A stretch of 36,376 bases of DNA, from the NCBI GenBank assembly GCA_902790495.1, contig CADASK010000029.1:1-36376 (forward strand), written 5' to 3'. Shown here one piece after another: positions 9,670 through 35,015 of this stretch. Both the position numbers and the translations under genes were made by a program. The notes under the pieces were generated by a model. That model saw only the letters and a list, made by a program, of their open reading frames with translations. It was not told the origin of the DNA and did not search any database. Every line of letters starts with the position of its first letter. Within the stretch, counting starts at the first letter, position 1. The stretch is from an uncultured Eubacteriales bacterium (lineage in GTDB: Bacteria > Bacillota > Clostridia > Christensenellales > Aristaeellaceae).

Positions 9670-10533
9670 TCACAGCCCCTGCTTTTTCAGCCGCGCGCGC
9701 ACGGAGGGACAGGCCGCGCAGCCGCCCTCGCCGGTCTCCCGGAGGCTGGAGGGCAGCGCGTCGCCGACTTCCTTCATGGCGAGGATCACCTCGTCCGGCT
9801 CCACCGGGCACCGAATGCCGGCCAGCGCCATGTCCGCCGCTGTGAAGGCGATGCCCACCGCGCCCACGTTGCGGTAGACGCAGGGCACCTCCACCAGGCC
9901 GCCCACAGGGTCGCAGACGAGGCCCATCAGGTTCATCAGTGCAAAGGCGGCCGCATGCACGCAGGTGGCTGCGTCAGCCCCTTCCATCTCGCACAGGGCA
10001 GCGGCAGCCATCGCGGCCGCCGCGCCGCACTCCGCCTGACAGCCGCCCTCGGCACCCGAAATCGAGGACTGGGAGGCAATGGCCTCGCCCACCGCCGCGG
10101 CGGCAAACAGTCCGTCCACCGCCTGCGCCTCGGTCCGCTCCTTTCCCTCGGTCATGGCCAGGAGCACGCCCGGCAGGATGCCGCAAGCGCCCGCTGTCGG
10201 TGCGGCGACGATCCGTCCCATGCAGGCGTTGCATTCGGCCGTCGCCAGCGCGTACATCTCGGCGCGGCCCAGCACCGGTCCGGCCAGGGATGCTCCCGCC
10301 TCCAGCCTGCGCCGCAGCAGCGCCGCCTGACCGCCCGTCAGTCCGCTGACCGACCGCAGCCCCTCGTCCAGGCCGCTGCGGGCGCTCGCCGTCATCTCGT
10401 GCCACATCCGCGTCATCGTATCGCGCACATGCTCTTCGGCCTGACCGTAGGTCTCGGCCTGGACGCGCTGGGCGGCCTGCGCCAGGCTGCCGCTCCCGGC
10501 CAGCTGAATCCACTCGCTGAGCGTGTGATCCAT
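9670..10533 (-). CDS. sdaAA: L-serine dehydratase, iron-sulfur type, alpha subunit
   Basis: 287 residues matching the alpha chain of two-subunit, [4Fe-4S]-dependent serine dehydratase, which converts L-serine to pyruvate and ammonia. The conserved block ECNACMGRIVAAPTAG followed by ACGILPG is present. Other Cys occur in EGGCQAECG and, near the C-terminus, in EGGCAACPS; these are candidate cluster ligands. The ATG overlaps the sdaAB stop (TGATG), implying translational coupling and 1:1 production. Together with gdhA in this window it points to amino-acid deamination capacity. Confidence 0.95.
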   Translation of the reverse strand: MDHTLSEWIQLAGSGSLAQAAQRVQAETYGQAEEHVRDTMTRMWHEMTASARSGLDEGLRSVSGLTGGQAALLRRRLEAGASLAGPVLGRAEMYALATAECNACMGRIVAAPTAGACGILPGVLLAMTEGKERTEAQAVDGLFAAAAVGEAIASQSSISGAEGGCQAECGAAAAMAAAALCEMEGADAATCVHAAAFALMNLMGLVCDPVGGLVEVPCVYRNVGAVGIAFTAADMALAGIRCPVEPDEVILAMKEVGDALPSSLRETGEGGCAACPSVRARLKKQGL

Positions 10534-19779: not shown

Positions 19780-19792
19780 TACAGACAGGTTT

Positions 19793-19849
19793 CGGCCTGC
19801 GGGCCGACCCGGGAGCTTTGCGATCGCCCCCGGGACCCCTTCGCTGCAT
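19793..19849 (-). repeat. Dispersed two-hairpin element, copy A
   Basis: On the plus strand: stem CGGCC/GGCCG closing TGCG, then CCCGGGAGC / GCCCCCGGG (one A-C mismatch) closing TTTGCGATC, then ACCCCTTCGCTGCAT. It lies 31 bases past the galK stop, inside what would be its 3' UTR. Annotated on the minus strand because all copies lie 3' of minus-strand genes; the true sense strand is unknown. Confidence 0.8.
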
Positions 19850-19880
19850 GTGTTTATTTCCTTGAGCTGTGGAAAAATAC

Positions 19881-21158
19881 TCAGTCCAGGCTGACCTCAG
19901 CCGCACCCTCGGGACGGATGTCCAGCACGTGGCAGCAGCCCTTGCCGAACACCGCATCGTTGGCGGCGATGAAGCTGTCCAGCCCCTCGGTGCGGACAAA
20001 GTTGAGCGTCGTGCCGGCAAAGCCACCGCCGTGCACGCGGGTCGCCGCGCAGGCGGGATGAGCCTTCGCGATGGCCTGGGCGAGGCAGAGGCCCTGCTCC
20101 TCAGGGTAGGCGTAGACGTTCTGCAGCAGCGTCCAGGAGGACAGGCCGCTGGCGTTGATCTCAGCGAGGAAGGCCTCCACGTCGTCCGCCTTCAGCGCCT
20201 GCACCTGGGCCGCCACCCTGCGGTTCTCGCCGTAGAAGTGGAAGGCGCGGAGCAGCGCGCGGTCAGGCACCTTGTGATAGAGCTTCGGCAGCGCCGCCAT
20301 GAAGGCAGCCTCGTCCACGTCCGCCAGCAGCTTGCCGCCCAGCGCCTCCGCCACCTGCTTCATCTCGGCGGGAATCGCCGCGTAGGCGGGCGTCAGGTTG
20401 GCGTGGCTGGCGCCCGTGGCCACCACCACTAAGGCAAAGCCCTTGTCGGCGAAGCTGTAGCTCAGGGCATTGACTGTCGGGTCCTCCGTGGCGAAGTCGA
20501 TGTTCACCAGGCCGCCCGAGGAGGAGGCCATCTGATCCAGCAGGCCGCTGGGCTTGCCGAAATGCACGTTCTCCGCGTACTGGCTGATCTTCGCCCTAGT
20601 CTTGAAGTCGATGACCGAGCCGTTGTACAGCCGGTCCTGAATCGCCACCATCAGCACCTCGAAGGCCGCGGAGGATGAAAGCCCGCTGCCCGAGGCCACG
20701 GACGAGGTCATCACCGCGTCAAAGCCGCCGATTTTGTAGCCCAAGGCCGCCATCCTGCACGCCACTCCGCGGATCAGCGCGGAGGTGGTTCCCTCCTCGC
20801 CCGCCTGGGGCTCCAGCTGCTCCAGGTTCACCTCGATAGCCGGATAGCCCTCGGAGTGCAAACAGACGGTCCTGTCCGCGCGGGGGCTCACCGCCGCCAG
20901 GGCGTCCAGGTTGACCGCCGCGGCCAGCACCTGGCCATGGTTGTGGTCGGTGTGGTTGCCGCCGATCTCCGTGCGCCCGGGCGCGCTCATCAGCAGAACG
21001 GTCTCCCGCTCGCCAAAGGTTTCCTCAAAACGATCCAGCAGCGTCTGATAGCGCGCCTGCTGGCGCTGTACCATGCCGTCCCGGGTACCGTACAGCTCCG
21101 CGAGCCGCGCGGCCGTCTTCTCAGTGGCAATCGCTGCCCTTCTCTGTCGATGCTCCAT
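19881..21158 (-). CDS. galK: Galactokinase (GHMP family)
   Basis: 425 residues from the ATG at 21158 (SD AGAGGAG). It phosphorylates galactose to galactose-1-phosphate with ATP in the cytoplasm. Visible: galactokinase signature SAPGRTEIGGNHTDHNHG (about 57-74), the GHMP ATP-binding motif SSVASGSGLSSSAAFEVL, and the C-terminal motif RVHGGGFAGTTLNFV. The open frame extends upstream of this start, but that sequence is the end of the overlapping solute-binding-protein gene. It lies 28 bases behind that gene and is probably co-transcribed with it. The mgl-type transporter at the other end of the window would deliver its substrate. Confidence 0.93.
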   Translation of the reverse strand: MEHRQRRAAIATEKTAARLAELYGTRDGMVQRQQARYQTLLDRFEETFGERETVLLMSAPGRTEIGGNHTDHNHGQVLAAAVNLDALAAVSPRADRTVCLHSEGYPAIEVNLEQLEPQAGEEGTTSALIRGVACRMAALGYKIGGFDAVMTSSVASGSGLSSSAAFEVLMVAIQDRLYNGSVIDFKTRAKISQYAENVHFGKPSGLLDQMASSSGGLVNIDFATEDPTVNALSYSFADKGFALVVVATGASHANLTPAYAAIPAEMKQVAEALGGKLLADVDEAAFMAALPKLYHKVPDRALLRAFHFYGENRRVAAQVQALKADDVEAFLAEINASGLSSWTLLQNVYAYPEEQGLCLAQAIAKAHPACAATRVHGGGFAGTTLNFVRTEGLDSFIAANDAVFGKGCCHVLDIRPEGAAEVSLD

Positions 21159-21186
21159 CACGAATCTCCTCTTTCCTTCAGCCGCA

Positions 21187-22695
21187 TCACTGTGGACGCG
21201 CGTCATAGGCCTGCTGCCAGATGTCCACCAGTTCCTCCATGCCCAGCTCCCGCACGCGGGCGGTGTAGGCGTTCCAGCTCTCATCCGTCAGCGCGATGTC
21301 GCCGGTCACGAAGCACGCCATGGCGTTCTCTGCGTAGGACGTGAGCGCCGGCCAGAGCTCTGCCACCCGCGCCTGCTGCGCGGCGGTGAGGAACACCTGG
21401 GGGTAGGCCTCCCGGCTGATCTCCGCCAGAGACACCAGCGAGGTCATCACGCGCTTGGCCGCCTCATCCTCGAAGGAGAGGCTGTAGCTGACCGGCGTGT
21501 ACCCCGGGATGATGGTGCCGTCGCTGATGGTCATGTCCTTCATGACCGTGTCGACCACCATCTCCGGGCTGTCCAGCCAGTACCAGGTGCCGTCCGAGAG
21601 GCGCTCGTACTCGTGCCCCTGCAGGCCACTGCGGGCCAGGAAGCAGCCGTCCTCTGTGTAGAGGTAATCCACCCAGCGCAGCACGGCCGGGATATCCCTG
21701 CAGGCGCTCGTCACGGCGAAGGCGCCGCGGCGCACCTCGCCCAGCAGGCTGCGGTAAACCTGGGTGCCCTCACTGGTCAGCGGCATCAGCAGCGCGTAAT
21801 CCCCCGCCATCTCGCTGGGCAGCATGTTCATCGGCGAAGGGCCGAAAACGATGCCGTAGGTCGGGGTGGCCTTGCTGTCGGTGATGGCGCGGCTGGTGCT
21901 GCCCAGGGTGAAGCCCGTGCGGTCCAGCAGGCCCTCCGTCCACAGGTCATGCAGCCAGGTGAGGAAGGCGCGGTTCTCGTCCGAGGTGAGCATATCGCGC
22001 ACCCGGCCTTCGCCGTCCACCGTCACGCCGTAATCGTTCGAGATCCACCCGAAGGCGTGCTGCAGGAACCGCAGGTCCCACAGGCCCGTGAAGGCGATGG
22101 GCACCTCGTCCGCACGGCCGTTGCCGTTGGGATCCTTCGTGGCGAAGGCGCGCAGCACCTCCGCCAGCTCCTCCGCCGTGGTCGGCGTGGACAGCTGGAG
22201 GGCGCGCAGCCAGCGCGTGTTGATCCACATCGCGTTCTGCGACATCAGCGGATCGATCAGCGGCAGCGCCGCCACAGCCCCGTCCGGCAGGGTGATATCC
22301 CGCAGCCATTCCGGATGCTCCTGCATCAGCGCCCAGAAGGCTGGCGCATGCTCCTGCAGGTAGGGCTTCAGGTCGATGAGCACACCGCGCTCATACAGCG
22401 CCAGCGTCTCCTGGGAGGAGAGCTGGGCCTTGAAGACCGCGTCGGGCAGCTCGCCGTCCGCCTGCCAGCCGGACTTTTCCAGCCGCCAGGCCTCCGCGTC
22501 CGCGAACTGGCGCAGTTCAAAGGAAACGCCTGTCTTCTCCACCATCCGGTCAAAGAACAGGTTGTTGTTCCAGTCATGCCCTGTTTCCTGGGGATCATAG
22601 CCGGCCAGAACCATCTGTTCCTCAGCCAGCGCAAAAGGCAAACATGACAGCAGCGCCATCAGCGCCGCCAGCAGAAGCACATACACCTTCCGCAA
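21187..22695 (-). CDS. ABC-type extracellular solute-binding protein (carbohydrate, LplA-like)
   Basis: 502 residues. The exported N-terminus (RKVYVLLLAALMALLSCLPF) could be cut at ALA-E or, less typically, lipid-modified at LLSC. The body resembles large family 1 solute-binding proteins of Firmicutes, with segments such as LYERGVLIDLKPYLQEHAPA, WINTRWLRAL, TKDPNGNGRADEVPIAFTGL and WVDYLYTEDG. It would capture a carbohydrate outside the cell for an ABC importer, but no permease or ATPase genes are next to it; galK follows. Start is TTG at 22695 just after an in-frame stop, with a GGGGTGAGG SD; no ATG is better placed. Confidence 0.85.
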   Translation of the reverse strand: MRKVYVLLLAALMALLSCLPFALAEEQMVLAGYDPQETGHDWNNNLFFDRMVEKTGVSFELRQFADAEAWRLEKSGWQADGELPDAVFKAQLSSQETLALYERGVLIDLKPYLQEHAPAFWALMQEHPEWLRDITLPDGAVAALPLIDPLMSQNAMWINTRWLRALQLSTPTTAEELAEVLRAFATKDPNGNGRADEVPIAFTGLWDLRFLQHAFGWISNDYGVTVDGEGRVRDMLTSDENRAFLTWLHDLWTEGLLDRTGFTLGSTSRAITDSKATPTYGIVFGPSPMNMLPSEMAGDYALLMPLTSEGTQVYRSLLGEVRRGAFAVTSACRDIPAVLRWVDYLYTEDGCFLARSGLQGHEYERLSDGTWYWLDSPEMVVDTVMKDMTISDGTIIPGYTPVSYSLSFEDEAAKRVMTSLVSLAEISREAYPQVFLTAAQQARVAELWPALTSYAENAMACFVTGDIALTDESWNAYTARVRELGMEELVDIWQQAYDARPQ

Positions 22696-22720
22696 CGCGC
22701 CTCACCCCTTTCATGTCTCT

Positions 22721-22749
22721 ATTATAACCGATTCCTGCCCGTTTGAACA
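22721..22749 (-). promoter_or_regulatory. Promoter of the solute-binding protein-galK operon
   Basis: Minus strand TATAAT (22726-22721) with a weak TGTTCA (22749-22744) 17 bases upstream. A perfect -10 with a poor -35 suggests activator dependence, which is inference. Confidence 0.6.
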
Positions 22750-22784
22750 GGCGTGAACAAGATTTTGGTGTCCGGCCTGCCCCG

Positions 22785-23651
22785 TCACGCCTCGTCCGCA
22801 AACAGGCGCTTCAGGCGCAGGGCGGCCTGCTTCACCGCGTTCTTCTTCTCGCCCGCAACGGTCAGCTTCTCCTGGCTCTCGCGCAGGCTCAGGCCGCCGC
22901 ACATGCACTCGACCAGCCGCGCCTCCAGGCTGAGATCAGCCTGCGCCGTGCTCTCGGCCTCCGGCGCGGGGACGGCGTGCAGATCCAGCACCGCACAGTA
23001 CTCACCCTTCTCCGCCTTCGGGTTGGCGTGGAGGATTTCGAGCACCTCCTCCGCCGTGCCTCGGACGGTCAGCTCGTGCAGCTTCGTCAGATCGCAGGAC
23101 AGGGAGATCCGTGCACCGGGCAGGGTTTCCGCCACCGCCTCCACCAGGTCGATCACCCGGAAGGGCGACTCGTGCACCACGGCGATCGGCGGGCCCTGGA
23201 GCAGGGCCGTCAGCGCGGCGCGAAGCTCCTTCCTCTCCCGCGGGAGGAAGCCGTAGAAGGCCCAGGCCCGCGTGTCGAAGCCGCACACTGAGATGGCCGC
23301 CACCGCCGCGCAGCAGCCTGGCACCGGCATCACAGGGATGTTCAGCTCCAGCGCCGCCTCGATCAGGCCCCAGCCCGGGTCGGAGACGCAGGGGGTACCC
23401 GCGTCCGTCACCACGGCCACGTCGATGTCCTCGGCTGCCATGCGCTCCGCGATCTGCCGTCCCTTGTCCGCCTCGTTGTGCCTGTGCACGCTGGTCATGG
23501 GCGTGTGGATGTCGAAGACCTGGCAGAGCTTCATGGTCTGGCGGGTATCCTCCGCGGCGATGAGGCTCACACCCTTGAGGGTCTCCACGGCGCGGGGCGT
23601 CATGTCGTTCAGGTTGCCGATGGGCGTCGCCACCACATAGAGGGTTGCCAT
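22785..23651 (-). CDS. rsmI: 16S rRNA (cytidine-1402 2'-O)-methyltransferase
   Basis: 288 residues, normal length. RsmI methylates the 2'-OH of C1402 in the ribosomal decoding centre. Tetrapyrrole-methylase fold motifs: LYVVATPIGNLNDMTPRA at the N-terminus, IAAEDTRQTMKL, VTDAGTPCVSDPG (SAM site) and FYGFLPRERKE. The ATG at 23651 overlaps the stop of rsmH (TGATG), so the two genes are coupled. Both enzymes modify the same nucleotide, RsmH on the base and RsmI on the ribose. Confidence 0.95.
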   Translation of the reverse strand: MATLYVVATPIGNLNDMTPRAVETLKGVSLIAAEDTRQTMKLCQVFDIHTPMTSVHRHNEADKGRQIAERMAAEDIDVAVVTDAGTPCVSDPGWGLIEAALELNIPVMPVPGCCAAVAAISVCGFDTRAWAFYGFLPRERKELRAALTALLQGPPIAVVHESPFRVIDLVEAVAETLPGARISLSCDLTKLHELTVRGTAEEVLEILHANPKAEKGEYCAVLDLHAVPAPEAESTAQADLSLEARLVECMCGGLSLRESQEKLTVAGEKKNAVKQAALRLKRLFADEA

Positions 23652-24595
23652 CACATCACCCCCAGTTTTTCCGCCACGCGCAGCTTCGCGCTGTGAGCCC
23701 GGGGATTCGCCTCGATCTCCTCCGCCGTGGGCTTGATCGCGCCGCCGCCCAGCACCTTCACCTTCGGCTTGCGGCCGCAGGTGCACACGGGCGCCTTCGG
23801 CGGGCAGATGCAGGGGTTCTGCAGCCGCTGGAAGCAGCGCTTCACGCAGCGATCCTCCAGGCTGTGGAAGGTGATGACCAGCAGCCGGCCGCCGGGGGCC
23901 AGGCAGTCCACCAGATCACAGAGCGCCTGATCCAGCGGATCCATCTCGTCGTTCACGGCGATGCGGATGGCCTGGAAGGTGCGCCGGGCCGGGTGGCCGT
24001 CATCCTTGCGGCGCACGGCCTTGGGGATGGCCGCGTCCACGCACTTCACTAAATCCTGGGTTGTCACCAGCGGCTTTTGCGCCCGGTGCTCACAGATCAT
24101 CTTCGCGATGCGCGCCGCCCACTTCTCTTCCCCGTAGTCGCGCAGGATGCGCGTCAGCTCGCCCTCGTCCGCCGTGTTGACCAGATCCGCCGCGGTCATG
24201 GGCTGGGTCGTGTCCATGCGCATGTCCAGCGGGGCGTCCTCATGGTAGGAGAAGCCGCGCTCGGCCTCGTCCAGCTGGGGGGACGACACGCCCAGATCCA
24301 GCAGCGCGCCGTTCAGTCCGGGCGCGCCGGCCTGCTCCAGCAGGACCTTCGCGTCATGGAAATTCCCATGGATGGCATGAAAGCCCGCGTAGCCCTGCAG
24401 CCGCTCGGTGGCCGCCGCGATGGCGCGCTCGTCCCGGTCGATGCCGTAGAGGGTCGCGGTGCCGCCGGAGCGACTGAGGATGCCCTCGCTGTGGCCGCCG
24501 CCGCCGAGGGTGCCGTCGCAGTAGACGCCGTCGGGCTGCGGGTCGATCCAGGTCATCACCGGGTCAAAGAGCACGGGAATGTGATGGAACGCCAT
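23651..24595 (-). CDS. rsmH: 16S rRNA (cytosine-1402 N4)-methyltransferase
   Basis: 314 residues from the ATG at 24595 (MAFHHIPVLFDPVM), SD GGAGG 9 bases upstream; the longer open frame runs into the intergenic repeat and is not used. Family motifs: YCDGTLGGGGHSEGIL (SAM binding), LDLGVSSPQLDEAERGFSY, and LLVITFHSLEDRCVKRCF. A Cys-rich insert (CICPPKAPVCTCGRK) precedes the C-terminus. The gene is usually in the mraZ-ftsL-division cluster; here it is paired with rsmI instead. Confidence 0.95.
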   Translation of the reverse strand: MAFHHIPVLFDPVMTWIDPQPDGVYCDGTLGGGGHSEGILSRSGGTATLYGIDRDERAIAAATERLQGYAGFHAIHGNFHDAKVLLEQAGAPGLNGALLDLGVSSPQLDEAERGFSYHEDAPLDMRMDTTQPMTAADLVNTADEGELTRILRDYGEEKWAARIAKMICEHRAQKPLVTTQDLVKCVDAAIPKAVRRKDDGHPARRTFQAIRIAVNDEMDPLDQALCDLVDCLAPGGRLLVITFHSLEDRCVKRCFQRLQNPCICPPKAPVCTCGRKPKVKVLGGGAIKPTAEEIEANPRAHSAKLRVAEKLGVM

Positions 24596-24633
24596 CAGTG
24601 TCTGCCTCCAATTCACTCTTCCTCTGTTGAAAA

Positions 24634-24650
24634 CCCTAGCGTTAGGGATT
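24634..24650 (-). other. Short hairpin upstream of rsmH
   Basis: Minus strand CCCTA-ACGC-TAGGG followed by TTTTC, next to copy B of the dispersed element and about 40 bases before the rsmH start. It could be a weak terminator or leader hairpin. I found no convincing sigma-A promoter between valS and rsmH. Confidence 0.45.
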
Positions 24651-24651
24651 C

Positions 24652-24708
24652 CGCGCCTGCGGGCGCGGGCAGGGGGCTTTGCGATCGCCCCCTGCACCCC
24701 TTCGCTGC
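24652..24708 (-). repeat. Dispersed two-hairpin element, copy B
   Basis: Plus strand: CGCGCC/GGCGCG closing TGCG, then GCAGGGGGC / GCCCCCTGC (9 perfect pairs) closing TTTGCGATC, then ACCCCTTCGCTGC. It lies 3' of valS, just beyond its terminator, and upstream of rsmH. Confidence 0.85.
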
Positions 24709-24732
24709 CTCCATAGATATGATATGCAGTAG

Positions 24733-24765
24733 AAAACACCCCGGCAGCGGCTTTCGTTGCCGGGG
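24733..24765 (-). terminator. Terminator of valS
   Basis: Minus strand CCCCGGCA pairs with TGCCGGGG across an 11-base loop, followed by TGTTTTC. Located 12 bases past the valS stop. Confidence 0.8.
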
Positions 24766-24776
24766 CTTGGGTCGTT

Positions 24777-27482
<2,706 letters not shown>

Positions 27483-27522
27483 GTGTTTGCAACCTCCTGT
27501 CGGAATTCTCTATGGTAAGCGT

Positions 27523-27720
27523 TTATCGGATGAACACGAGCACAGCGCCCAGCATGGCGATGCCCAGGCCGGCGAAGCGGAAAATGCGCTCCGCCGTGGG
27601 GCGCTTCTCCTCCGCTACAGGCAGAAGAGACGCCCATTTTCCCGCGCCGTAGCCCAGCACCGCGCCGAGGGCCAGCACAGCGACACCAGGCTGGAAAAGC
27701 CTTGTCAGGATATCCGCCAC
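27523..27720 (-). CDS. Small two-segment membrane protein
   Basis: 65 residues starting at a GTG (27720) with a strong SD GGGGAGGTGA 4 bases upstream; the longer open frame is T-box leader. Two hydrophobic stretches are visible, GVAVLALGAVLGYGAGKWA and FAGLGIAMLGAVLVFIR, joined by a short charged loop. Family not recognised. It sits between the valine T-box terminator and valS, 40 bases before valS, so valine-tRNA starvation should induce it together with valS. Confidence 0.65.
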   Translation of the reverse strand: MADILTRLFQPGVAVLALGAVLGYGAGKWASLLPVAEEKRPTAERIFRFAGLGIAMLGAVLVFIR

Positions 27721-27742
27721 GGTATCACCTCCCCTCGTGACC

Positions 27743-28012
27743 AAAACAAAACAAAGCTCCATCCCGAAGGACGGAGCTGTTCCGTGGTACCACCTTGTTT
27801 CGCAGACACGGTACGCCGAAGAACCGGTCATCTGCCTCATTGCGCACGATAACGGGTGCAACCGCACGGGCTAAAGCCCTTCCGGACTCTTCACGCCGCG
27901 CTCTTCAAAAGCGACCTTCCCCTGCTGCCTGCGGAAACAGCCTCTCAGCCCATGAGCCGTTCTCTCTTGCCGCGCCCTGCAGGGTACTCCTCTTCTGTCT
28001 GCGAGTTTTCAT
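27743..28012 (-). promoter_or_regulatory. T-box riboswitch leader of valS, with terminator
   Basis: T-box core AAGGTGGTACCACGG (27796-27782). A terminator follows: AGCTCCGTCC / GGATGGAGCT around a TTCG loop (27778-27755) and a T-rich tract (27754-27743). Stem I marks: AGAAGAGGAGTA, AGAGAG and GGCTGAGAGGC. The segment GGAAGGTCGC supplies a GTC valine codon at 27915-27913 followed by a purine, the likely specifier. Conserved CCGTTATC and AATGAGGC occur around stem III. The leader begins right after the rpmF stop, and no separate promoter is clear. Confidence 0.92.
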
Positions 28013-28019
28013 ATGGGCA

Positions 28020-28214
28020 TCAGGCTTCCTTGCGCTCCTCTTCGAGGTTCAGGACCTGCTTGCCGTTGTAGTAGCCGCAATTCTTGCACACGTGGTGATC
28101 CAGCTTCATCTGATGGCACTGGGGGCACTCAACGATGCCCGGCATGCTCAGCTTCCAGTTGGCCTGACGGCTGTGCTTGCGAGCCTTGGAAACTTTTCCC
28201 TTCGGTACTGCCAT
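28020..28214 (-). CDS. rpmF: Ribosomal protein L32
   Basis: 64 residues from the ATG at 28214 with SD GAGGAGGTG. Typical start MAVPKGKVSKARKHSR and a zinc ribbon (CPQCHQMKLDHHVCKNC) showing all four Cys, i.e. the zinc-binding form. It follows yceD, as in most bacteria. The stop codon is immediately followed by the valine T-box leader, without a terminator. Confidence 0.97.
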   Translation of the reverse strand: MAVPKGKVSKARKHSRQANWKLSMPGIVECPQCHQMKLDHHVCKNCGYYNGKQVLNLEEERKEA

Positions 28215-28281
28215 ATTCACACCTCCTCAACCGATGCTTCCGCCGCGCTCCAGCGGGCGGTCGGATGGTGAACTGCCATCC

Positions 28282-28797
28282 TCAGTCATCACTTTCGCCA
28301 GCTTGTTCAGCCAGCAGCTGCTTTAACGCCGCAAAAGGATGCTGACCAGGCAGTTCCTCTTGGCTCAGGCGCACACTCACTCCCCGGCTCTCCCAATCAC
28401 CGATCCCGGCGCAGCCATCCTTGCAGATGAAGCGCATGGGCAGATTCAGCACCGTGTAGGTCAGCGCGAGACGCTCGAGATCGATCTTCCCGCTGTTGTA
28501 GGAAAAGATCTCGTCGTCCTCCGGATCGCCTCCGTAGATGAAGGTCTCCCGGTAATCCGCTGTCACGGAGACAGACACTGGGGCCAGACAGTAGGCACAA
28601 CGGGCATGAGCGACCGTGGTCAGCTTGCCGTCCACAACGACATCGCCGTTCTCCATCGCCACAAACGTTCCCTCAAGCTGCGCGTCGTCCAGCGTGACGG
28701 TATCCCCCGCGATATCCTGGGGTGCCATGGCCTGCTCCCCCCGGAAGGGATATACCGTGCCGGCATTGCGGATTGCCTGTGTAACGTCGAGCTTCAT
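28282..28797 (-). CDS. yceD: YceD-family (DUF177) protein
   Basis: 171 residues of the DUF177 family, nearly always encoded just before rpmF. In plants and E. coli members are linked to 23S rRNA or large-subunit biogenesis; the exact role here is unknown. Family signs: a CAYC pair around residue 67-71 (ARCAYCLAPV) and CKDGCAG near 128, possible metal ligands, and the acidic C-terminal tail. SD GGGAGGAG precedes the ATG. First gene of the yceD-rpmF unit, driven by a consensus promoter. Confidence 0.9.
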   Translation of the reverse strand: MKLDVTQAIRNAGTVYPFRGEQAMAPQDIAGDTVTLDDAQLEGTFVAMENGDVVVDGKLTTVAHARCAYCLAPVSVSVTADYRETFIYGGDPEDDEIFSYNSGKIDLERLALTYTVLNLPMRFICKDGCAGIGDWESRGVSVRLSQEELPGQHPFAALKQLLAEQAGESDD

Positions 28798-28827
28798 GCC
28801 ACTCCTCCCGTTTTGTGACCATGAGCT

Positions 28828-28856
28828 ATTATAGGCGTTGAGCGCCGTTTTGTCAA
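28828..28856 (-). promoter_or_regulatory. Full-consensus sigma-A promoter of yceD-rpmF
   Basis: Minus strand TTGACA (28856-28851), 17-base spacer, TATAAT (28833-28828): both hexamers and spacing are perfect. It may also drive valS by read-through. Confidence 0.92.
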
Positions 28857-28901
28857 CAACTTTTCCGCTTTTCGGCGCTGATTTTCGTTACAGAAATGAA
28901 C

Positions 28902-28928
28902 AAAAAGAGGGCGGCTCGCCCGTCCTCT
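28902..28928 (-). terminator. Terminator of the asd-dapA-dapB operon
   Basis: Minus strand AGAGG-A-CGG / CCG-C-CCTCT with one A-C mismatch and a GCGAG loop, then TTTTTG. About 17 bases past the dapB stop. Confidence 0.8.
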
Positions 28929-28945
28929 CGATGTTCCCGGTGATC

Positions 28946-29692
28946 TCACAGGCCGCTCACCAGATCGTCCATGGAATACAGACCCGGCTCCTTGCCCTGC
29001 AGATAGGCCGCCGCGCGCAGCGCACCCTCGGCGAACACCGCCCGGTTCTCCGCGCTGTGGCTCAGCGTGATCCGCTCCATCGGCCCCAAAAACAGCACCT
29101 GATGCTCGCCGGTTACCGTGCCGCCGCGCACCGCGTGCAGGCCGACCTCGCGCTTCTGCCGGGCGCAGTCCCGTCCGCTGCGGCCGCACACCGCCTCACG
29201 GTTTTCCATCCCCGCGTTCTTCACCGCCTCATAGAGCATGAGGGCCGTGCCGCTGGGGGCGTCCTTCTTACGGTTGTGGTGGGCCTCGACGATCTCGATG
29301 TCAAAGTCCTCGCCCAAAGCCTGGGCGCTTTCCCTCGCCAGCCTGCGCAGCAACGCAATGCCGACGCTCATGTTGGCTGAACGGAACACCGGCGTGCGCT
29401 TCGCCGCCTCGGCGATGTCCGCCATCTCCTCCTCGCCGTAGCCCGTGGTGGCCAGCACCAGCGGCAGCGGACTGCGCGCGCAGTAAGCCAGGATCCCCGG
29501 CAGCGCCGAGGGATGCGAAAAGTCAATCAGCGCGTCCGCGCAGCCCGCCGGCACCTGGGCCCAGTCGTTCACAATACCGTCTTCCGCCGCGTGGGGATCG
29601 AAGCGGCAGGCGACCTCGACGCCATGGCTCTTCGCGGCCTCGGCCACCGCCCGGCCCATATGGCCGGCCGCACCGGTGATGATGATTCTCAT
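28946..29692 (-). CDS. dapB: 4-hydroxy-tetrahydrodipicolinate reductase
   Basis: 248 residues. It reduces hydroxy-tetrahydrodipicolinate with NAD(P)H in the lysine and meso-diaminopimelate pathway. Visible: nucleotide-binding MRIIITGAAGHMGRAVAEAA, ATTGYGEEE, the active-site signature EAHHNRKKDAPSGTALML, and the C-terminal FAEGALRAAAYL helix. Last gene of asd-dapA-dapB; 39 bases after dapA. Confidence 0.97.
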   Translation of the reverse strand: MRIIITGAAGHMGRAVAEAAKSHGVEVACRFDPHAAEDGIVNDWAQVPAGCADALIDFSHPSALPGILAYCARSPLPLVLATTGYGEEEMADIAEAAKRTPVFRSANMSVGIALLRRLARESAQALGEDFDIEIVEAHHNRKKDAPSGTALMLYEAVKNAGMENREAVCGRSGRDCARQKREVGLHAVRGGTVTGEHQVLFLGPMERITLSHSAENRAVFAEGALRAAAYLQGKEPGLYSMDDLVSGL

Positions 29693-29731
29693 TCCGTTTC
29701 CGTCCTTCCAGCCGTCCTGCGGCAGCGCGCC

Positions 29732-30616
29732 TTACGCGATCATCCCGAGCTCGCGCAGGATCGCCGCCAGCTTCTCACGGTTCTGGGGCTGCATCGGCAC
29801 CAGGGGCAGGCGCAGCTCGTCCGCGCACAGGCCCAGCATGCTCATGGCCGCCTTGACCGGGATCGGGCTCGTCTCGCAGAACAGCGCGTTGGTCAGGGGC
29901 AGCAGCTTCAGCTGCAGCGCCGCCGCCTCGCGGTTCTTGCCCTCCAGCGCCAGATGCGCCATCTGCACGGTCTCCGCGGGGCACACGTTGGACAGCACGG
30001 AAATCACACCCTGGAAGCCGCAGGAGATCAGCGGCACAATCAGGTCGTCGTTGCCGGAGTAGAAGGTCACGCTGTCGCCGCAGAGCCGCACTTTCTCCAG
30101 GGCCTGGCCCACGTCACTGGAGGCTTCCTTGACCGCCACGATGTTCGGGTGGCCGCAGATCTCCCGCATGGCCGCCGGGCCAATGTTGATGCCCGTGCGG
30201 GACGGCACGTTGTAGACGATGACCGGCAGGGTAGCTGCGTCCGCGATGGCGTGGAAGTGGGCCACCAGGCCCTCCTGGCTCGTCTTGTTGTAGTAGGGCG
30301 TGACCACCAGCTGGGCGTCCGCGCCGAATTCCTTGCTCATGCGCGCCGCGTCCACGGCCTCGCGCGTGCAGTTGGAGCCCGTGCCCGCGATGACCGGCAC
30401 GCGCCCGTGGGCCACGTCCACCACGCGGCGGATGACCGCCAGGTGCTCCTCCCAGGTCATGGTGGCCGGCTCGCCCGTGGTGCCAGCCGCCACCAGGCCG
30501 TCGATACCCGCCGCGATCTGGCTCTCCACCAGGGCGTCGAGGGCGGGATAATCCACCTCCCCGTTCCTGAAGGGGGTGATCAGCGCTGTCGCGCAGCCCC
30601 GAAAGAGCGCGTTCAT
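29732..30616 (-). CDS. dapA: 4-hydroxy-tetrahydrodipicolinate synthase
   Basis: 294 residues, standard length. It condenses aspartate semialdehyde with pyruvate. Visible: GTTGEPATM (usually GTTGEsaTL), TPYYNKTSQEGL with the catalytic Tyr, YNVPSRTGINI, and the Schiff-base Lys in IVAVKEASSD. The ATG overlaps the asd stop (ATGA), so translation is probably coupled. Its substrate comes from the upstream gene and its product goes to the downstream one. Confidence 0.97.
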   Translation of the reverse strand: MNALFRGCATALITPFRNGEVDYPALDALVESQIAAGIDGLVAAGTTGEPATMTWEEHLAVIRRVVDVAHGRVPVIAGTGSNCTREAVDAARMSKEFGADAQLVVTPYYNKTSQEGLVAHFHAIADAATLPVIVYNVPSRTGINIGPAAMREICGHPNIVAVKEASSDVGQALEKVRLCGDSVTFYSGNDDLIVPLISCGFQGVISVLSNVCPAETVQMAHLALEGKNREAAALQLKLLPLTNALFCETSPIPVKAAMSMLGLCADELRLPLVPMQPQNREKLAAILRELGMIA

Positions 30617-31686
30617 CCCATGTACCCCTTTCTGCAGAGCAGCTCCGCAGTCAATATGCCGCCGCCCGCCGCGCCGCGCACGGTGTTGTGGCTCAGGCAG
30701 ACGAAGCGATAGTCGAACAGCTTGTCCTCCCGCAGGCGGCCGATGGGCACGCCGAAGCCGCGCTCAAAGTCGCGGTCCAGCCGGGTCTGGGGCCGGGAAG
30801 GATCCTCAAAGTACTGCAGGAAGGGCTTCGGCGCGCTGGGCAGCTCCAGGCGCTGGGCCTCCGTCTCGAAGGAGCGCCAGCGGCGGATCATCTCCTCCAT
30901 CTCGGGCTTGTCCCGGAAGGAGACGGACACGGCCGCCATGTGGCCGTCCGAGCAGGCTACGCGCAGGCACTGGGCGCTGATGAGGGGCTTCTCGGCGGAG
31001 ATGATCTTCCCGTCCTCCAGCCTGCCCCAAATCTTGAGGGGCTCGATCTCACTCTTCTCGTCCTCGCCGCTGATAAAGGGGATCACGTTGTCCACCATCT
31101 CGGGCCAGGTTTTGAAGGTCTTGCCTGCGCCGGAAATCGCCTGATAGGTGCAGACACTGATCTTCTCCACGCCAAAGTCCAGCAGCGGGGTCAGGGCCGG
31201 CACATAGCTCTGGATGGAGCAGTTGGGCTTCACGGCGATAAAGCCGCGCTTCGTGCCAAGGCGCTGGCGCTGGAAGGGAATCACGTCGATGTGGCCGGGG
31301 TTCAGCTCCGGGATCACCATCGGCACGTCCTCCAGGCCTCGGCAGGCGCTGTTGTTGCTCACCACGGGGATCTCGTGCCTGGCGTAGGTCTCCTCCAGCG
31401 CGCGAACCTCGCTCTTGGGCATGTCCACGGCGCAGAAGACGAAGTCCACCTTCCCGGCGATGGCGTCCACATCCGCCGCGTCCATCACCTTCATGCCGGC
31501 GATCCCCTCCGGGATCGGAGCCTCGAAGGCCCAGCGGCTGCCCACCGCCTCCGCGTAGGGCTTGTCCGCGCTGCGCGAGGACGCGGCCAGCGCCGTGATT
31601 TCAAACCAGGGATGTCCCTGCAGCAAGAGGATAAAGCGCTGACCGACCATGCCGGTGGCGCCCACGATGCCAACGCGGTAATGCAT
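30613..31686 (-). CDS. asd: Aspartate-semialdehyde dehydrogenase (fungal/archaeal-type)
   Basis: 357 residues from the ATG at 31686 (MHYRVGIVGATGMVGQRF), SD AGGAGG 8 bases upstream. It reduces aspartyl phosphate to aspartate semialdehyde, the branch point to lysine, diaminopimelate, threonine and methionine. Visible: the Rossmann GATGMVGQ motif, catalytic Cys in VKPNCSIQSY, SNNSACRG, and HNTVRGAAGGGIL near the C-terminus. Length and motifs fit the fungal/archaeal class rather than the E. coli type. First gene of the operon. Confidence 0.96.
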   Translation of the reverse strand: MHYRVGIVGATGMVGQRFILLLQGHPWFEITALAASSRSADKPYAEAVGSRWAFEAPIPEGIAGMKVMDAADVDAIAGKVDFVFCAVDMPKSEVRALEETYARHEIPVVSNNSACRGLEDVPMVIPELNPGHIDVIPFQRQRLGTKRGFIAVKPNCSIQSYVPALTPLLDFGVEKISVCTYQAISGAGKTFKTWPEMVDNVIPFISGEDEKSEIEPLKIWGRLEDGKIISAEKPLISAQCLRVACSDGHMAAVSVSFRDKPEMEEMIRRWRSFETEAQRLELPSAPKPFLQYFEDPSRPQTRLDRDFERGFGVPIGRLREDKLFDYRFVCLSHNTVRGAAGGGILTAELLCRKGYMG

Positions 31687-31758
31687 GTTCCATGCCTCCT
31701 TGATGGTTACCAGGCCGCAAAGCCTGTCCGGATCCGCCCTTGGGTGCGCGGATGTGCT

Positions 31759-31788
31759 ATTGTAGCATGGCGGCGGCGGGACTGTCAA
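31759..31788 (-). promoter_or_regulatory. Sigma-A promoter of asd-dapA-dapB
   Basis: Minus strand TTGACA (31788-31783), 18-base spacer, TACAAT (31764-31759). The leader of about 65 bases is too short for a lysine riboswitch; it holds only a small CAGGC/GCCTG hairpin. Confidence 0.82.
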
Positions 31789-31810
31789 CGAAAATACAAA
31801 GATGGAACAA

Positions 31811-31847
31811 CGCAAAGCAGCCGCCCTTGTATAAGAAGGACGGCTGC
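31811..31847 (-). terminator. Probable terminator of the mgl operon
   Basis: Minus strand GCAGCCG-T-CCTT / AAGG-G-CGGCTGC around a 7-base loop, followed by TTTGCGTTG, a weak T tract. It separates the mgl operon from the asd promoter. Confidence 0.6.
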
Positions 31848-31898
31848 CGTAACACGTCTGATAATCAGCTATGAATACTTACTTCTGCAAAGGGGTTC

Positions 31899-32024
31899 CG
31901 CGCCTGTGGGCGCGGGCAAAGGGCTTTGCGATCGATCCGGGGTTGCCACCCGTTCTCCGCTGAAAACTCCATAACATGGAGTTTTCCGGGCGCTCCGAAC
32001 CCCCTGCACCCCTTCGCTGCATCC
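31899..32024 (-). repeat. Dispersed two-hairpin element, copy C (extended form)
   Basis: Starts like the other copies on the plus strand: CGCGCC/GGCGCG closing TGTG, then GCAAAGGGC and the invariant TTTGCGATCG. About 65 bases not found in copies A, B and D follow (31935-31999), then CCCCCTGCACCCCTTCGCTGC as in copy B. The extra segment holds an 11-bp hairpin GAAAACTCCAT-AAC-ATGGAGTTTTC (31962-31986) and a smaller CGGGGT/ACCCG pairing. It lies 33 bases past the stop of the last mgl-operon gene. Apart from this element, the mgl terminator and the asd promoter, nothing was found in the 31687-32057 gap. Confidence 0.75.
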
Positions 32025-32057
32025 TCTTAACTCTTTCAATCATAGCAGCAAGACGTA

Positions 32058-32318
32058 TTAAAGTTTGAAGATGCCGGCGGCTTCCAGGATGATGAGCACG
32101 AACACGATCACCAGTGCGATGCTCACCACCCAGATGATCACGTCCAGCTGCTTCACGGAGAGGGGCACCTTGTCGTACCACAGCTCCTTTTTCGCCTGGA
32201 GCCTGCGGGAGTAGGGCTTGTTCTCCAGGCCCGCCTCCCGCTCCTCAATCTCTCGCTCTTTCTCGCGGAGGGCGCGTTCCCTCTCCGCAAGCTTTCTCTC
32301 GCGTTCCTCGATCGTCAT
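32058..32318 (-). CDS. Small coiled-coil, single-pass membrane protein
   Basis: 86 residues from the ATG at 32318. Residues 2-30 form a highly charged heptad-like helix (MTIEERERKLAERERALREK, then EREIEEREAG). The single membrane segment is near the C-terminus (about 64-83, VIIWVVSIALVIVFVLIILE). Family not recognised. It starts 4 bases after the mglC stop with a modest SD (AAGAAGTG), so it is the last gene of the mgl operon. A role with the transporter is inferred from position only. Confidence 0.75.
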   Translation of the reverse strand: MTIEERERKLAERERALREKEREIEEREAGLENKPYSRRLQAKKELWYDKVPLSVKQLDVIIWVVSIALVIVFVLIILEAAGIFKL

Positions 32319-32322
32319 AGCA

Positions 32323-33336
32323 TCACTTCTTGGCGATGTACTTGCGGATATCCAGGGACACGGCCAGCACGATGACCAGGCCCTGCACCACATAGTTGTA
32401 GTAGGGGTTGACGCCCAGGAACTGCAGGATGATCTTCAGCAGCTCGAACACCAGCACGCCCACCAGGATGCCGGGCACGGTGCCGATACCGCCGGTGGTG
32501 GAGACGCCGCCGATGGTGCAGCCCGCGATGGCTTCCAGCTCATAGCCCTGGCCCATGGACGCGGAGGAGCCGCCGGACTTGGCCGCCAGCAGGTAGCCGG
32601 CGATGGCGTACATCACGCCGGCCGTGGCGTAGATGCCGATCAGGGTGCTGGTCGTGTTGACGCCGGAGACCTCAGCGGCCACCTCGTTGCCGCCGATGGC
32701 ATACATGTACTTGCCGTGGCGGGTCTTGTTGTAGATAAACCAGAACAGCAGGCCGAACACAGCCGCCACGAACAGCAGGTAGGGCAGGTGGAAGCCCTTG
32801 ACGCTGCCGATGCGGCCGTTGATCAGCGTGGTGTAGATCTTCTGGAAGCCGCCGATGGGCTGGGCGTCGGAGATCACCAGGGAGATACCGTAGATGATCG
32901 TCTGGGTGCCCAGGGTCGCAATGAAGGGCGGCACGTGCAGCTTGGTGACAATCAGGCCGTTGATGAGACCCCAGATCAGACCGAGCACCAGCACGATGAG
33001 GAACACCAGGCCGATGTTCATCTCAGGAGCCCACTTCCACAGACGGCCCGTGTAGTCGCCGCGCTGGCACAGGATGCCAGCCACCACAGCCGCGAAGCCC
33101 ACCTGACGGCCGGCGGACAGGTCCGTGCCCTTGGTGATCAGGCAGCCGGACACGCCCAGCGCGATCAGGAAGCGCACGGCGGTGTTGCTCATCAGGTTCC
33201 CGAAGTTGGCCCAGGAGAAGAAGTTGTCCTTCATGAAGCCGACCACGATGGCGGCAATCAGCAGCAGTAAGACGATAGGATTGCCCTTGACGATGCGCAG
33301 CGCTTTTTGGGCTGCGGTTTCCTGCTTCTTTTCCAT
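32323..33336 (-). CDS. mglC: Galactose/methyl-galactoside ABC transporter permease
   Basis: 337 residues, mostly hydrophobic, with about eight to ten membrane helices. It matches the MglC/RbsC-type permease family: GTDLSAGRQVGFAAVVAGI, NGLIVTKLHVPPFIATLGTQ, YAIGGNEVAAEVSGVNT, and IAGCTIGGVSTTGGIGTVPG. It forms the channel of the sugar importer with MglA and MglB. The ATG at 33336 is 9 bases after the SD AAGGGGG; the ATG three codons upstream abuts the SD. 18 bases downstream of mglA. Confidence 0.93.
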   Translation of the reverse strand: MEKKQETAAQKALRIVKGNPIVLLLLIAAIVVGFMKDNFFSWANFGNLMSNTAVRFLIALGVSGCLITKGTDLSAGRQVGFAAVVAGILCQRGDYTGRLWKWAPEMNIGLVFLIVLVLGLIWGLINGLIVTKLHVPPFIATLGTQTIIYGISLVISDAQPIGGFQKIYTTLINGRIGSVKGFHLPYLLFVAAVFGLLFWFIYNKTRHGKYMYAIGGNEVAAEVSGVNTTSTLIGIYATAGVMYAIAGYLLAAKSGGSSASMGQGYELEAIAGCTIGGVSTTGGIGTVPGILVGVLVFELLKIILQFLGVNPYYNYVVQGLVIVLAVSLDIRKYIAKK

Positions 33337-33354
33337 CTTGTACATCCCCCTTGT

Positions 33355-34866
33355 TTACTCGAACTGGGTCGCCAGCGCCATGATGTTCTCCTGGGTGGCG
33401 TCCTTGCCGTCAATAAAGCCGGTCACACGGCCGTCGCACATCACCATGATGCGGTCGCTCATGCCGATCAGCTCGCTCATCTCCGAGCTGATCATGATGA
33501 TCGACTTGCCCTCGCGGGCCATCTCCTCGATGATGCAGTAGATTTCATACTTCGCGCCGACGTCGATACCGCGGGTCGGCTCGTCCATGATGAACACGTC
33601 CGGGTTGTTGGCCAGCCAGCGTCCCAGCAGCACCTTCTGCTGGTTGCCGCCGGAGAGCGATTTGATCTGGGTCTTGGAAGAAGGTGTCTTGATGTTCATC
33701 TTCTTCACGTTGTCCTGCACCAGGCTTTCCACCTTCTTGCTGTTGATGGAGACGCCGTAGTCCAGGTACTGGTTCAGGGATGAGATGGAAATGTTGTCCG
33801 CCACGCTCAGCACGCCCATGATACCGCTGCCGCGCCGGTCCTCCGTCAGCATGGCGACGCCCTGGTCGATGGCGTCCTTCGGACGGTTGATATGCATTTC
33901 CTTGCCCTTGTAAAAGATCTGCCCCTTGGAGTGAGAGCGGATGCCGAACAGGCCCTCCATCAGCTCCGTGCGTTGGGCGCCCACCAGGCCGCCCACACCC
34001 AGGATTTCGCCCTTGCGCAGCTGGAAGGAGATGTTGCGGAAGGAGCGCGGGTTGATGGACGTGAAGTCCTTCACCTCGAACACGACCTCGCCGGGCACGT
34101 TGTTCTTGGGCGGATAGAGGTTGGTCAGCTCGCGGCCCACCATCTTGGTGATGATGGAATCCGTCGTCATCTCGCTGGCCGGCCAGGTGCCGATGTACTG
34201 GCCGTCGCGCATGATGGTGATGTCGTCGCCGATGCGCAGGATCTCGTCCATCTTGTGGGAGATGTAGACGATGGCGACGCCCTCGGCCTTCAGGTCAGCG
34301 ATGATACGGAACAGGGCTTCCACCTCGTTGGCCGTCAGCGAGGAGGTCGGCTCATCGAGGATCAGCACGCGGCAGTTGGCGGAGACAGCCTTCGCAATTT
34401 CCACGCTCTGCATCTGCGAGACGGACAGCTCGCCCACCTTCTGCTTCGGGTCAAAGTTCATGCGAACCTTTTTGAGCAGCTCGGCGGTGTCAGCGTACAT
34501 CTTTTTGTGGTCGATGATCGGAATCAAGCCGAGCGCCTTCTTCATGGGATAACGGCCCAGGAAGATGTTTTCGCCTACGGTGCGCGCCGGGATCGGCTGC
34601 AGCTCCTGGTGCACCATGGCGATGCCCTTGTGCAGGGCGTCCATGGGATCGTTGATGGTCACGGGCTGACCGTCCAGCTTGATCTGCCCCTCATCCATCT
34701 TGTAAATGCCGAACATGCACTTCATCAGCGTGGATTTGCCCGCGCCGTTCTCCCCCATCAGGGCGTGCACCTTGCCCGGACGCAGCTTGAGCTGTGCGTG
34801 GTCCAGGGCCTTGACGCCGGGGAAGGCTTTGCATACATCGGTCATTTCCAGTACGTACTCAGACAT
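33355..34866 (-). CDS. mglA: Galactose/methyl-galactoside ABC transporter ATP-binding protein
   Basis: 503 residues with two ABC domains, as in MglA/RbsA/XylG. The first has Walker A GENGAGKST, signature LSVSQMQSVEIAKA and Walker B VLILDEPTSSL. The second has a degenerate Walker A (GLVGAQRTELMEGLFG), intact signature LSGGNQQKVLLGRWL and FIMDEPTRGIDVG, the normal arrangement for this family. It powers import through MglC. The ATG at 34866 has SD AAGGGGGG; the longer open frame upstream lies in the intergenic repeat region. Confidence 0.95.
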   Translation of the reverse strand: MSEYVLEMTDVCKAFPGVKALDHAQLKLRPGKVHALMGENGAGKSTLMKCMFGIYKMDEGQIKLDGQPVTINDPMDALHKGIAMVHQELQPIPARTVGENIFLGRYPMKKALGLIPIIDHKKMYADTAELLKKVRMNFDPKQKVGELSVSQMQSVEIAKAVSANCRVLILDEPTSSLTANEVEALFRIIADLKAEGVAIVYISHKMDEILRIGDDITIMRDGQYIGTWPASEMTTDSIITKMVGRELTNLYPPKNNVPGEVVFEVKDFTSINPRSFRNISFQLRKGEILGVGGLVGAQRTELMEGLFGIRSHSKGQIFYKGKEMHINRPKDAIDQGVAMLTEDRRGSGIMGVLSVADNISISSLNQYLDYGVSINSKKVESLVQDNVKKMNIKTPSSKTQIKSLSGGNQQKVLLGRWLANNPDVFIMDEPTRGIDVGAKYEIYCIIEEMAREGKSIIMISSEMSELIGMSDRIMVMCDGRVTGFIDGKDATQENIMALATQFE

Positions 34867-34952
34867 GCTTGGTATGCCCCCCTTTTCTACCTGCCGAACA
34901 GCGCTCTTCGCGGAAGAAACGTCCAAACACTCCAGCGCAGCAGCACGGGTTT

Positions 34953-35015
34953 CGCCGCCTGCGGGCGGCGACCAAAGGGCTTTGCGATCGCCCTTTGGAA
35001 ACCTTCGCTGCATCC
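34953..35015 (-). repeat. Dispersed two-hairpin element, copy D
   Basis: Plus strand: CGCCGCC/GGCGGCG closing TGCG, then CCAAAGGGC / GCCCTTTGG (9 perfect pairs) closing TTTGCGATC, then AAACCTTCGCTGCATCC. It lies in the 294-base mglB-mglA intergenic region. The rest of that region holds the two hairpins beside mglB and the mglA ribosome binding site; no gene is seen. Confidence 0.85.

What the first reader, a model, noticed from the sequence alone, without database searches (positions are those of the whole stretch)
19793..35015. Four copies of a structured intergenic element with covarying stems
Copies at 19793, 24652, 31899 and 34953 share one plan. Hairpin 1 is closed by TGCG (TGTG once), with stems CGGCC, CGCGCC, CGCGCC and CGCCGCC each matched by its complement. 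Hairpin 2 encloses the invariant TTTGCGATC, with stems CCCGGGAGC, GCAGGGGGC and CCAAAGGGC each paired by the changed partner arm. A conserved CCTTCGCTGC tail follows. Stem sequence changes while pairing is kept, which is the mark of selection on structure. All four are in the same orientation, 31 to 145 bases past the stop of a minus-strand gene (galK, valS, last mgl gene, mglB). Possible roles: 3' UTR processing or stability element, REP-like mobile palindrome, or protein-binding RNA. I do not recognise it as a named family.
Basis: partly seen in the sequence, partly recalled or inferred. Interest (0 to 1): 0.8.

Follow-up and report, generated by a model that had tools for sequence, protein, structure and literature searches.

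The report
REP-like mobile repeats with pseudoknot tails
The four look-alike hairpins belong to a family of hundreds of short DNA repeats that appear to have multiplied between the genes of this bacterium and its relatives, and they share a folded shape in which the tail pairs back into the hairpin loop.

Summary
The loop motif CTTTGCGATCG occurs 340 times in this 2.47 Mb genome, reversed-pattern control 0. The family is patchy in related bacteria (41 of 200 family genomes). The core is hairpin 1, hairpin 2 and a tail. Tail TCGC pairs with loop GCGA, or TCGG with CCGA, forming a pseudoknot; the changing pair is Watson-Crick in 318 of 332 copies. The linker C-run equals the stem G-run minus one in 87% of 323 copies. 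A long form carries a 65-nt inner module with its own covarying stems. Copies lie between genes (188 of 198) in either orientation, so a 3'-UTR role is unlikely. Of 27 copies assessable in a congener, 24 sites are empty. Close inverted neighbours never share a stem type (0 of 19). This fits a REP-like non-autonomous mobile repeat. The mobiliser is unknown: five element-rich genomes lack Y1/RAYT transposase, TnpB, reverse transcriptase and above-cut-off IS110 matches. Whether ssDNA or RNA is selected is open.

The parts
19785..19844 (+). Copy 1, short form: hairpin 1 stem TCGGCC 19792-19797 / GGCCGA 19802-19807; hairpin 2 arms 19808-19815 / 19827-19834 (one A.C mismatch); loop GCGA 19820-19823 pairs with tail TCGC 19841-19844
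   Evidence: R1 match 68.5 bits; no element in the G068 counterpart
24645..24705 (+). Copy 2, short form: hairpin 1 CCGCGCC 24651-24657 / GGCGCGG 24662-24668; hairpin 2 GCAGGGGG 24669-24676 / CCCCCTGC 24688-24695; loop GCGA 24681-24684 / tail TCGC 24702-24705
   Evidence: R1 86.3 bits; also present in G068 inside an island of identity
31892..32017 (+). Copy 3, long form: hairpin 1 31898-31915; 5' arm GCAAAGGG 31916-31923; loop GCGA 31928-31931; inner module 31932-31999; mismatched 3' arm CCCCCTGC 32000-32007; tail TCGC 32014-32017
   Evidence: R2 145.9 bits
34947..35008 (+). Copy 4, short form: hairpin 1 TCGCCGCC 34952-34959 / GGCGGCGA 34964-34971; hairpin 2 CCAAAGGG 34972-34979 / CCCTTTGG 34991-34998; loop GCGA 34984-34987 / tail TCGC 35005-35008
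   Evidence: R1 76.5 bits

Best explanation
These are copies of a REP-like, non-autonomous mobile repeat of the intergenic DNA. Shown: a modular structured core (hairpin 1; hairpin 2 with a CTTT[G/C]CGATC loop; an A/C linker; a TCG[C/G] tail that pairs with the loop), an optional inner module, hundreds of copies in this genome, copies absent from most assessable sites in a congener, position almost only between genes in both orientations, and avoidance of same-type inverted neighbours. Inferred: the core spreads as a folded single strand, recognised by an enzyme encoded in trans. The loop tetranucleotide works as a guide that selects the tail TCG[C/G] as the end of the element, as guide sequences select cleavage sites in IS200/IS605; changing the guide base requires the matching change in the tail. 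The short form is probably a deletion derivative of the long form, and stem types reassort by recombination between copies.
For: Copy number: 340 CTTTGCGATCG in G000, control 0; TTTGCGATCGNCC in 7 of 12 genus genomes, own included: 233, 27, 23, 9, 2, 2, 1. Long-form matches: 149 in G000, 141 in G060, 136 in G061, 97 in G068, 2-62 in the other eight, at most 150 candidates scored per genome. Pseudoknot: first pair Watson-Crick in 318 of 332 copies, G:C and C:G both common; in A1 this pair is GC 30 / CG 12 and the fourth pair AU 35, GU 5, GC 2. The swap occurs within stem types CAAAGGG, CAGAGGG and CCGGGGG, so it is not one lineage's mark. Mobility: of 95 elements 27 could be assessed in G068; 24 have no element there by regular expression nor by either covariance model at E up to 1 (read against the intervals). 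Intergenic: 91 of 94, 97 of 104 held out, 37 of 43 in G068, contig-edge cases left out. Inverted neighbours within 250 nt: 0 of 19 typed pairs share a hairpin-1 type, shuffled mean 8.8, 0 of 5000 shuffles; tandem neighbours 5 of 7. Heterodimer preference is reported for REP dimers (PMC3733652, passages read). Modularity: arm types CAGGGGG, CAAAGGG, TCAGGGG, CAAGGGG, CCGGGGG and GAGGGGG each occur short and long.
Against: No mobiliser found in the five genomes richest in long-form matches (G000, G044, G060, G061, G068): no Y1_Tnp, no TnpB (0 of 12 genomes), no reverse transcriptase, IS110 only below cut-off in G000 and G068 inside frames of about 1500 aa. These genomes are 66-95% complete. G065, with 40 long-form matches, does hold two IS200-type Y1 genes and three reverse transcriptases, so a mobiliser of those kinds lost elsewhere is not excluded. 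Ends and target duplications were not resolved, because whole intergenic regions differ between the species; in rows 0, 2, 37 and 68 the G068 segment is even longer, so 'empty' is not 'clean insertion'. The strand bias expected of lagging-strand ssDNA transposition appeared in the first 424 kb (69 of 95 against GC skew) but did not replicate (62 of 106, p 0.098; G068 24 of 45). Nothing shows that the tail is a cleavage site. The shared sites lie in stretches of raised identity, which could mean spread by homologous recombination instead.
Confidence: 0.6

Rival explanations
1. A structured RNA parasite or non-coding RNA: the pseudoknotted + strand is transcribed and folds to bind a protein, and the DNA repeats are the record of its copying. 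The inner module with conserved unpaired blocks would be a protein- or RNA-binding domain.
For: Pseudoknot, stem b (GCTC/GAGC, GTTC/GAAC, ATTC/GAAT) and inner hairpin all covary. G.T outnumbers A.C on the + strand in nested pairs (35 against 25 in A3, 23 against 8 in A4) and in the pseudoknot (22 against 4, 16 against 12).
Against: No fixed orientation to genes; no reverse transcriptase in G000, G044, G060, G061 or G068; the G.T counts come from related copies and are not independent; no Rfam match at gathering score.
Confidence: 0.2
2. Spread and homogenisation by homologous recombination or gene conversion between copies and strains, with hairpin correction during replication making arms match; no dedicated enzyme.
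For: Raised identity around shared sites: copy 2 100% at 24538-24738 in 70-95% surroundings; L038 locus 95-100% at 9904-10264, though its surroundings reach 98% in places. Chimeric copies such as window copy 3; reassorted modules.
Against: Does not obviously create new sites in unlike intergenic DNA (24 of 27 without an element in G068); arm correction cannot explain the 4-bp loop-tail covariation or the linker tracking.
Confidence: 0.12
3. A cis-acting 3'-UTR, terminator or mRNA-stability element.
For: Stable folds (z -3.5, -2.8 and -3.3 for window copies 2, 3 and 4, but -0.95 for copy 1); intergenic position.
Against: Both orientations, divergent gene pairs included; none of the 14 listed terminator-like sites coincides with a copy; copy number differs up to about 100-fold between congeners.
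Confidence: 0.05

Closest known systems
REP / BIME repeats with RAYT (TnpA_REP), and the CGTC-tagged REPs
   Same: Short intergenic palindromes in tens to hundreds of copies, uneven between relatives, stem subfamilies, head-to-head heterodimers; CGTC repeats likewise seem to lack a dedicated transposase (PMC3733652 and PMC8266576, passages read)
   Different: No RAYT in G000; no GTAG tag in the 5' flank profile (CGTC not scored separately); the conserved tetranucleotide lies in the loop and pairs with the tail; two hairpins and an optional inner module; host a Clostridia relative, while 'Firmicutes' and 'Clostrid' occur 0 times in that paper's main text
IS200/IS605 ends (described in PMC8266576, passages read)
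   Same: A subterminal hairpin and a tetranucleotide guide that pairs with the cleavage site, so guide and site change together
   Different: Here the candidate guide is in the hairpin loop, not 5' of the hairpin; no Y1 transposase or TnpB in the five element-rich genomes
BOX elements of Streptococcus pneumoniae
   Same: Modular intergenic repeats with an optional inner module predicted to fold largely on its own (PMC3049150, passages read)
   Different: BOX has variable numbers of boxB and terminal inverted repeats; no pseudoknot is mentioned in the passages read; sequences were not compared by a tool

Membership tests
REP with RAYT (REPtron) | Y1/HUH transposase of the IS200-like superfamily in the genome | tested here: not met
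   PF01797: 0 in G000, G044, G060, G061, G068; control rings in 5 of 14 named genomes including E. coli. G065, G066, G067 of the genus do have matches
REP with RAYT (REPtron) | GTAG tag 5' of the hairpin | tested here: not met
   5' flank is purine-rich, then T (88 copies, position frequencies); no GTAG in the profile
REP (general) | 20-40 bp palindrome, extragenic, high copy, subfamilies, dimers | tested here: met
   but the core is longer (60 nt) with two hairpins. Units of about 31-40 nt without hairpin 1 occur in two viral contigs
IS200/IS605-derived element (PATE) | TnpA or TnpB of the family present to act in trans | tested here: not met
   for the five element-rich genomes; no element seen beside the four Y1 loci of G065, G066, G067
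IS200/IS605-derived element (PATE) | guide-cleavage site pairing | tested here: inconclusive
   loop-tail pairing shown; cleavage not testable here
Classical MITE | terminal inverted repeats and target-site duplication | tested here: inconclusive
   no TIR seen in flank profiles; sites too diverged to read a duplication
Any Rfam family | match at or above gathering score | tested here: not met
   0 matches in window; best overlap with a copy is chrB-a, 22.5 bits against 43.9 needed, E 3.4
Intrinsic terminator | hairpin followed by T tract | tested here: not met
   14 terminator-like sites listed, none at a copy

The most novel reading that the evidence does not exclude
A new class of mobile palindrome in Clostridia in which the hairpin loop is a 4-nt guide that base-pairs with the element's own 3' end, with a third strand (the linker) tracking the stem. 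It would be moved by an undescribed structure-specific enzyme that is neither RAYT, TnpB nor a reverse transcriptase, and its end would be respecified by swapping the guide base, as nature has done (GCGA/TCGC to CCGA/TCGG).
Probability: 0.3. Interest if true: 0.8.

Novelty: new variant of a known kind. Interest (0 to 1): 0.62.

Why it matters
Well-studied REP repeats come mostly from Proteobacteria, with a known enzyme (PMC3733652, PMC8266576, passages read). A family with hundreds of copies in a Clostridia relative, carrying a covarying pseudoknot and no recognised mobiliser, makes two questions testable: which enzyme moves folded single strands without a Y1 domain, and whether loop-tail pairing selects the cut site. 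In G060 at least five long copies end within 60 bases of a contig end, so such repeats may also break metagenome assemblies.

Tried and rejected
3'-UTR or cis-RNA element: disfavoured on orientation. Lagging-strand bias: seen in the first 424 kb, then tested on a second set with the prediction noted beforehand, not replicated; dropped. Depletion from divergent gene pairs (5 observed, 15.5 expected) also did not replicate (22 in the second set). RAYT, TnpB, reverse transcriptase, IS110 as mobilisers; no other transposase family was searched. TnpB guide-RNA (reRNA) idea: dropped. HDV-like and twister ribozymes: considered from recall only; I saw no match of plan. Second pseudoknot GCCC/GGGC in the long form: columns nearly invariant, no covariation. 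Outer stem between the 5' purines and the linker: predicted by folding, but by my reading the 5' T count follows hairpin-1 type while the linker follows hairpin-2 type; not counted formally. tRNA link: ARAGORN finds tRNA genes beside two weak matches (L203, L217); not followed. Literature: searches listed no paper that describes this repeat; the library is open-access PMC only.
Full report
What is there. The four copies are present. Each reads, 5' to 3' on the + strand: purines and T; hairpin 1 with a TGCG loop (TGTG in copy 3); hairpin 2 with the loop CTTTGCGATCG; an A/C linker; TTCGC. Copies 1, 2 and 4 are short (about 60 nt).

How many. CTTTGCGATCG occurs 340 times in the 2.47 Mb genome, the reversed control 0 times. 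Among 60 family genomes the next highest count is 23, in the same genus. With TTTGCGATCGNCC, 7 of 12 genus genomes match, own included: 233, 27, 23, 9, 2, 2 and 1. The long-form covariance model matches all 12: G000 149, G060 141, G061 136, G068 97, G044 62, G065 40, the rest 2-11, with 150 candidates scored per genome. In the order, 16 of 396 genomes match, 13 of them (own included) in the same family. The short-form model matches 41 of 200 family genomes in 13 of 50 genera. Searches used stricter filters. The short model finds 201 matches in the 812 kb of G000 held, long forms partly included.

Structure. I aligned 42 of 47 long copies and 55 of 97 short copies parsed; 5 and 42 were left out. 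Of cells, 96.8% and 87.4% form standard pairs. Cells paired, cells changed on both sides and the covariation score exceed all 500 shuffles and the slid controls; the counts of covarying pairs and pair types do not (26, 434, 240 and 314 of 500 shuffles reach them). Hairpin-1 figures are lowered, I think, by stems of different length. The decisive feature is the loop-tail pseudoknot. Where the loop is TTTGCGATC the tail is TTCGC; where it is TTTCCGATC the tail is TTCGG. Over 332 parsed copies from four species and others, the first pair is Watson-Crick in 318. The fourth pair shows A-U, G-U and G-C. Both versions occur within stem types CAAAGGG, CAGAGGG and CCGGGGG, so the change arose or moved more than once. 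The linker also tracks the stem: its C-run equals the G-run of the arm minus one in 87% of 323 copies, 0 of 2000 permutations reaching this. I cannot explain this; a third strand lying along the stem, as in H-type pseudoknots, is one idea.

Long form and modules. The inner module has its own covarying stem (GCTC/GAGC, GTTC/GAAC, ATTC/GAAT) and hairpin. Among the loci of other genera that one search shows (several at contig ends did not print), the inner module stands inside other outer stems, for example L193, L206, L209 and L215, and the outer core stands alone (L197, L202, L211) or with another branch (L198, L212). Three viral contigs hold outer units. In L219 and L221, which share this stretch, two units without hairpin 1 lie in tandem at the end of a long phage frame; L220 has one unit with a hairpin 1. 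So hairpin 1 is dispensable, and the elementary unit seems to be hairpin 2 with its pseudoknot tail. In G000 six common arm types occur in both short and long form; the CCAGAGG type (15 copies) was classed as neither by my filter.

Where and how they sit. With a simple codon-usage gene finder (coding fraction 0.865), 91 of 94 copies in the first 424 kb, 97 of 104 in a held-out 388 kb and 37 of 43 in G068 are intergenic, edge cases left out. Orientation to genes is mixed. An opposite-to-GC-skew bias in the first set (69 of 95) did not replicate (62 of 106; G068 24 of 45), so I do not claim it. Neighbours within 250 nt: 15 head-to-head, 6 tail-to-tail, 13 tandem. Of 19 typed inverted pairs (21 in all) none share a hairpin-1 type, against 5 of 7 typed tandem pairs (13 in all) (Fisher p 0.0003; 0 of 5000 shuffles). 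This is what is expected if long perfect inverted repeats are lost, and matches the heterodimer preference described for REPs (PMC3733652, passages read).

Mobility. For 27 of 95 elements both flanks align to G068; 3 have an element there, 24 do not. The covariance models place no match at E up to 1 in any of these 24 intervals. Some of the 27 share an intergenic region. Exact junctions could not be read because the whole intergenic segment differs, and in four cases the G068 segment is longer than in G000. The three shared elements lie at two loci. Window copy 2 is in a 200-nt stretch of 100% identity within 70-95% surroundings; the L038 pair is in a 95-100% stretch whose surroundings range from 62 to 98%. 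This suggests local recombination between species, constraint, or an assembly effect.

Mechanism. The best reading is a REP-like non-autonomous mobile repeat spreading as a folded single strand, with loop-tail pairing doing what guide-cleavage site pairing does in IS200/IS605 (described in PMC8266576, passages read). Shown: structure, copy number, intergenic position, turnover. Inferred: enzyme, cut site, ssDNA. G.T exceeds A.C on the + strand, weakly favouring that strand as the folded one, as ssDNA or RNA. No candidate enzyme was found in the five element-rich genomes, which are incomplete; G065 (40 long-form matches) does have Y1 and reverse transcriptase genes.

Membership and novelty. It works like a REP but fails the REPtron features tested (no Y1 transposase, no GTAG tag). 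It resembles BOX in modularity (PMC3049150, passages read). No Rfam family matches at gathering score. No plasmid record and only two unverified phage contigs of 4-7 kb hold a partial match to the long form. The eight literature searches listed no paper that describes it. I rate it a new variant of a known kind.

Noticed in passing
   Followed up: no
L022:1501-1732, L034 near 6244-6451, L036 near 8556, L045 near 10216: What looks like a second intergenic repeat family (CTCTCCCTCTGGGAGAGCTGTC ... GTGACTGAGAGGG) lies next to several copies.
   Followed up: no
window:24538-24738 against L250; L038:9904-10264 against L233: Stretches of 95-100% identity between two species around shared elements; clear-cut for the window locus, less so for L038.
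   Followed up: partly
L203:1501-1610 and L217:1501-1614: Inner-module-like hairpins next to tRNA-Arg and tRNA-Gln genes in genomes of another family, with a T-arm-like sequence in inverted orientation on the far side.
   Followed up: partly
window:1-4235: Large minus-strand frame with 192-nt repeats.
   Followed up: no
L152 near its right end (G065:C63): CRISPR-like direct repeat GTCCCGCCCCGCACGGGGCGGGTGGATTGAAAT, two copies printed.
   Followed up: no
L219:920-1010 and L221:2250-2340: An element unit forms the last codons of a long phage frame, so the repeat can supply a protein C-terminus.
   Followed up: no
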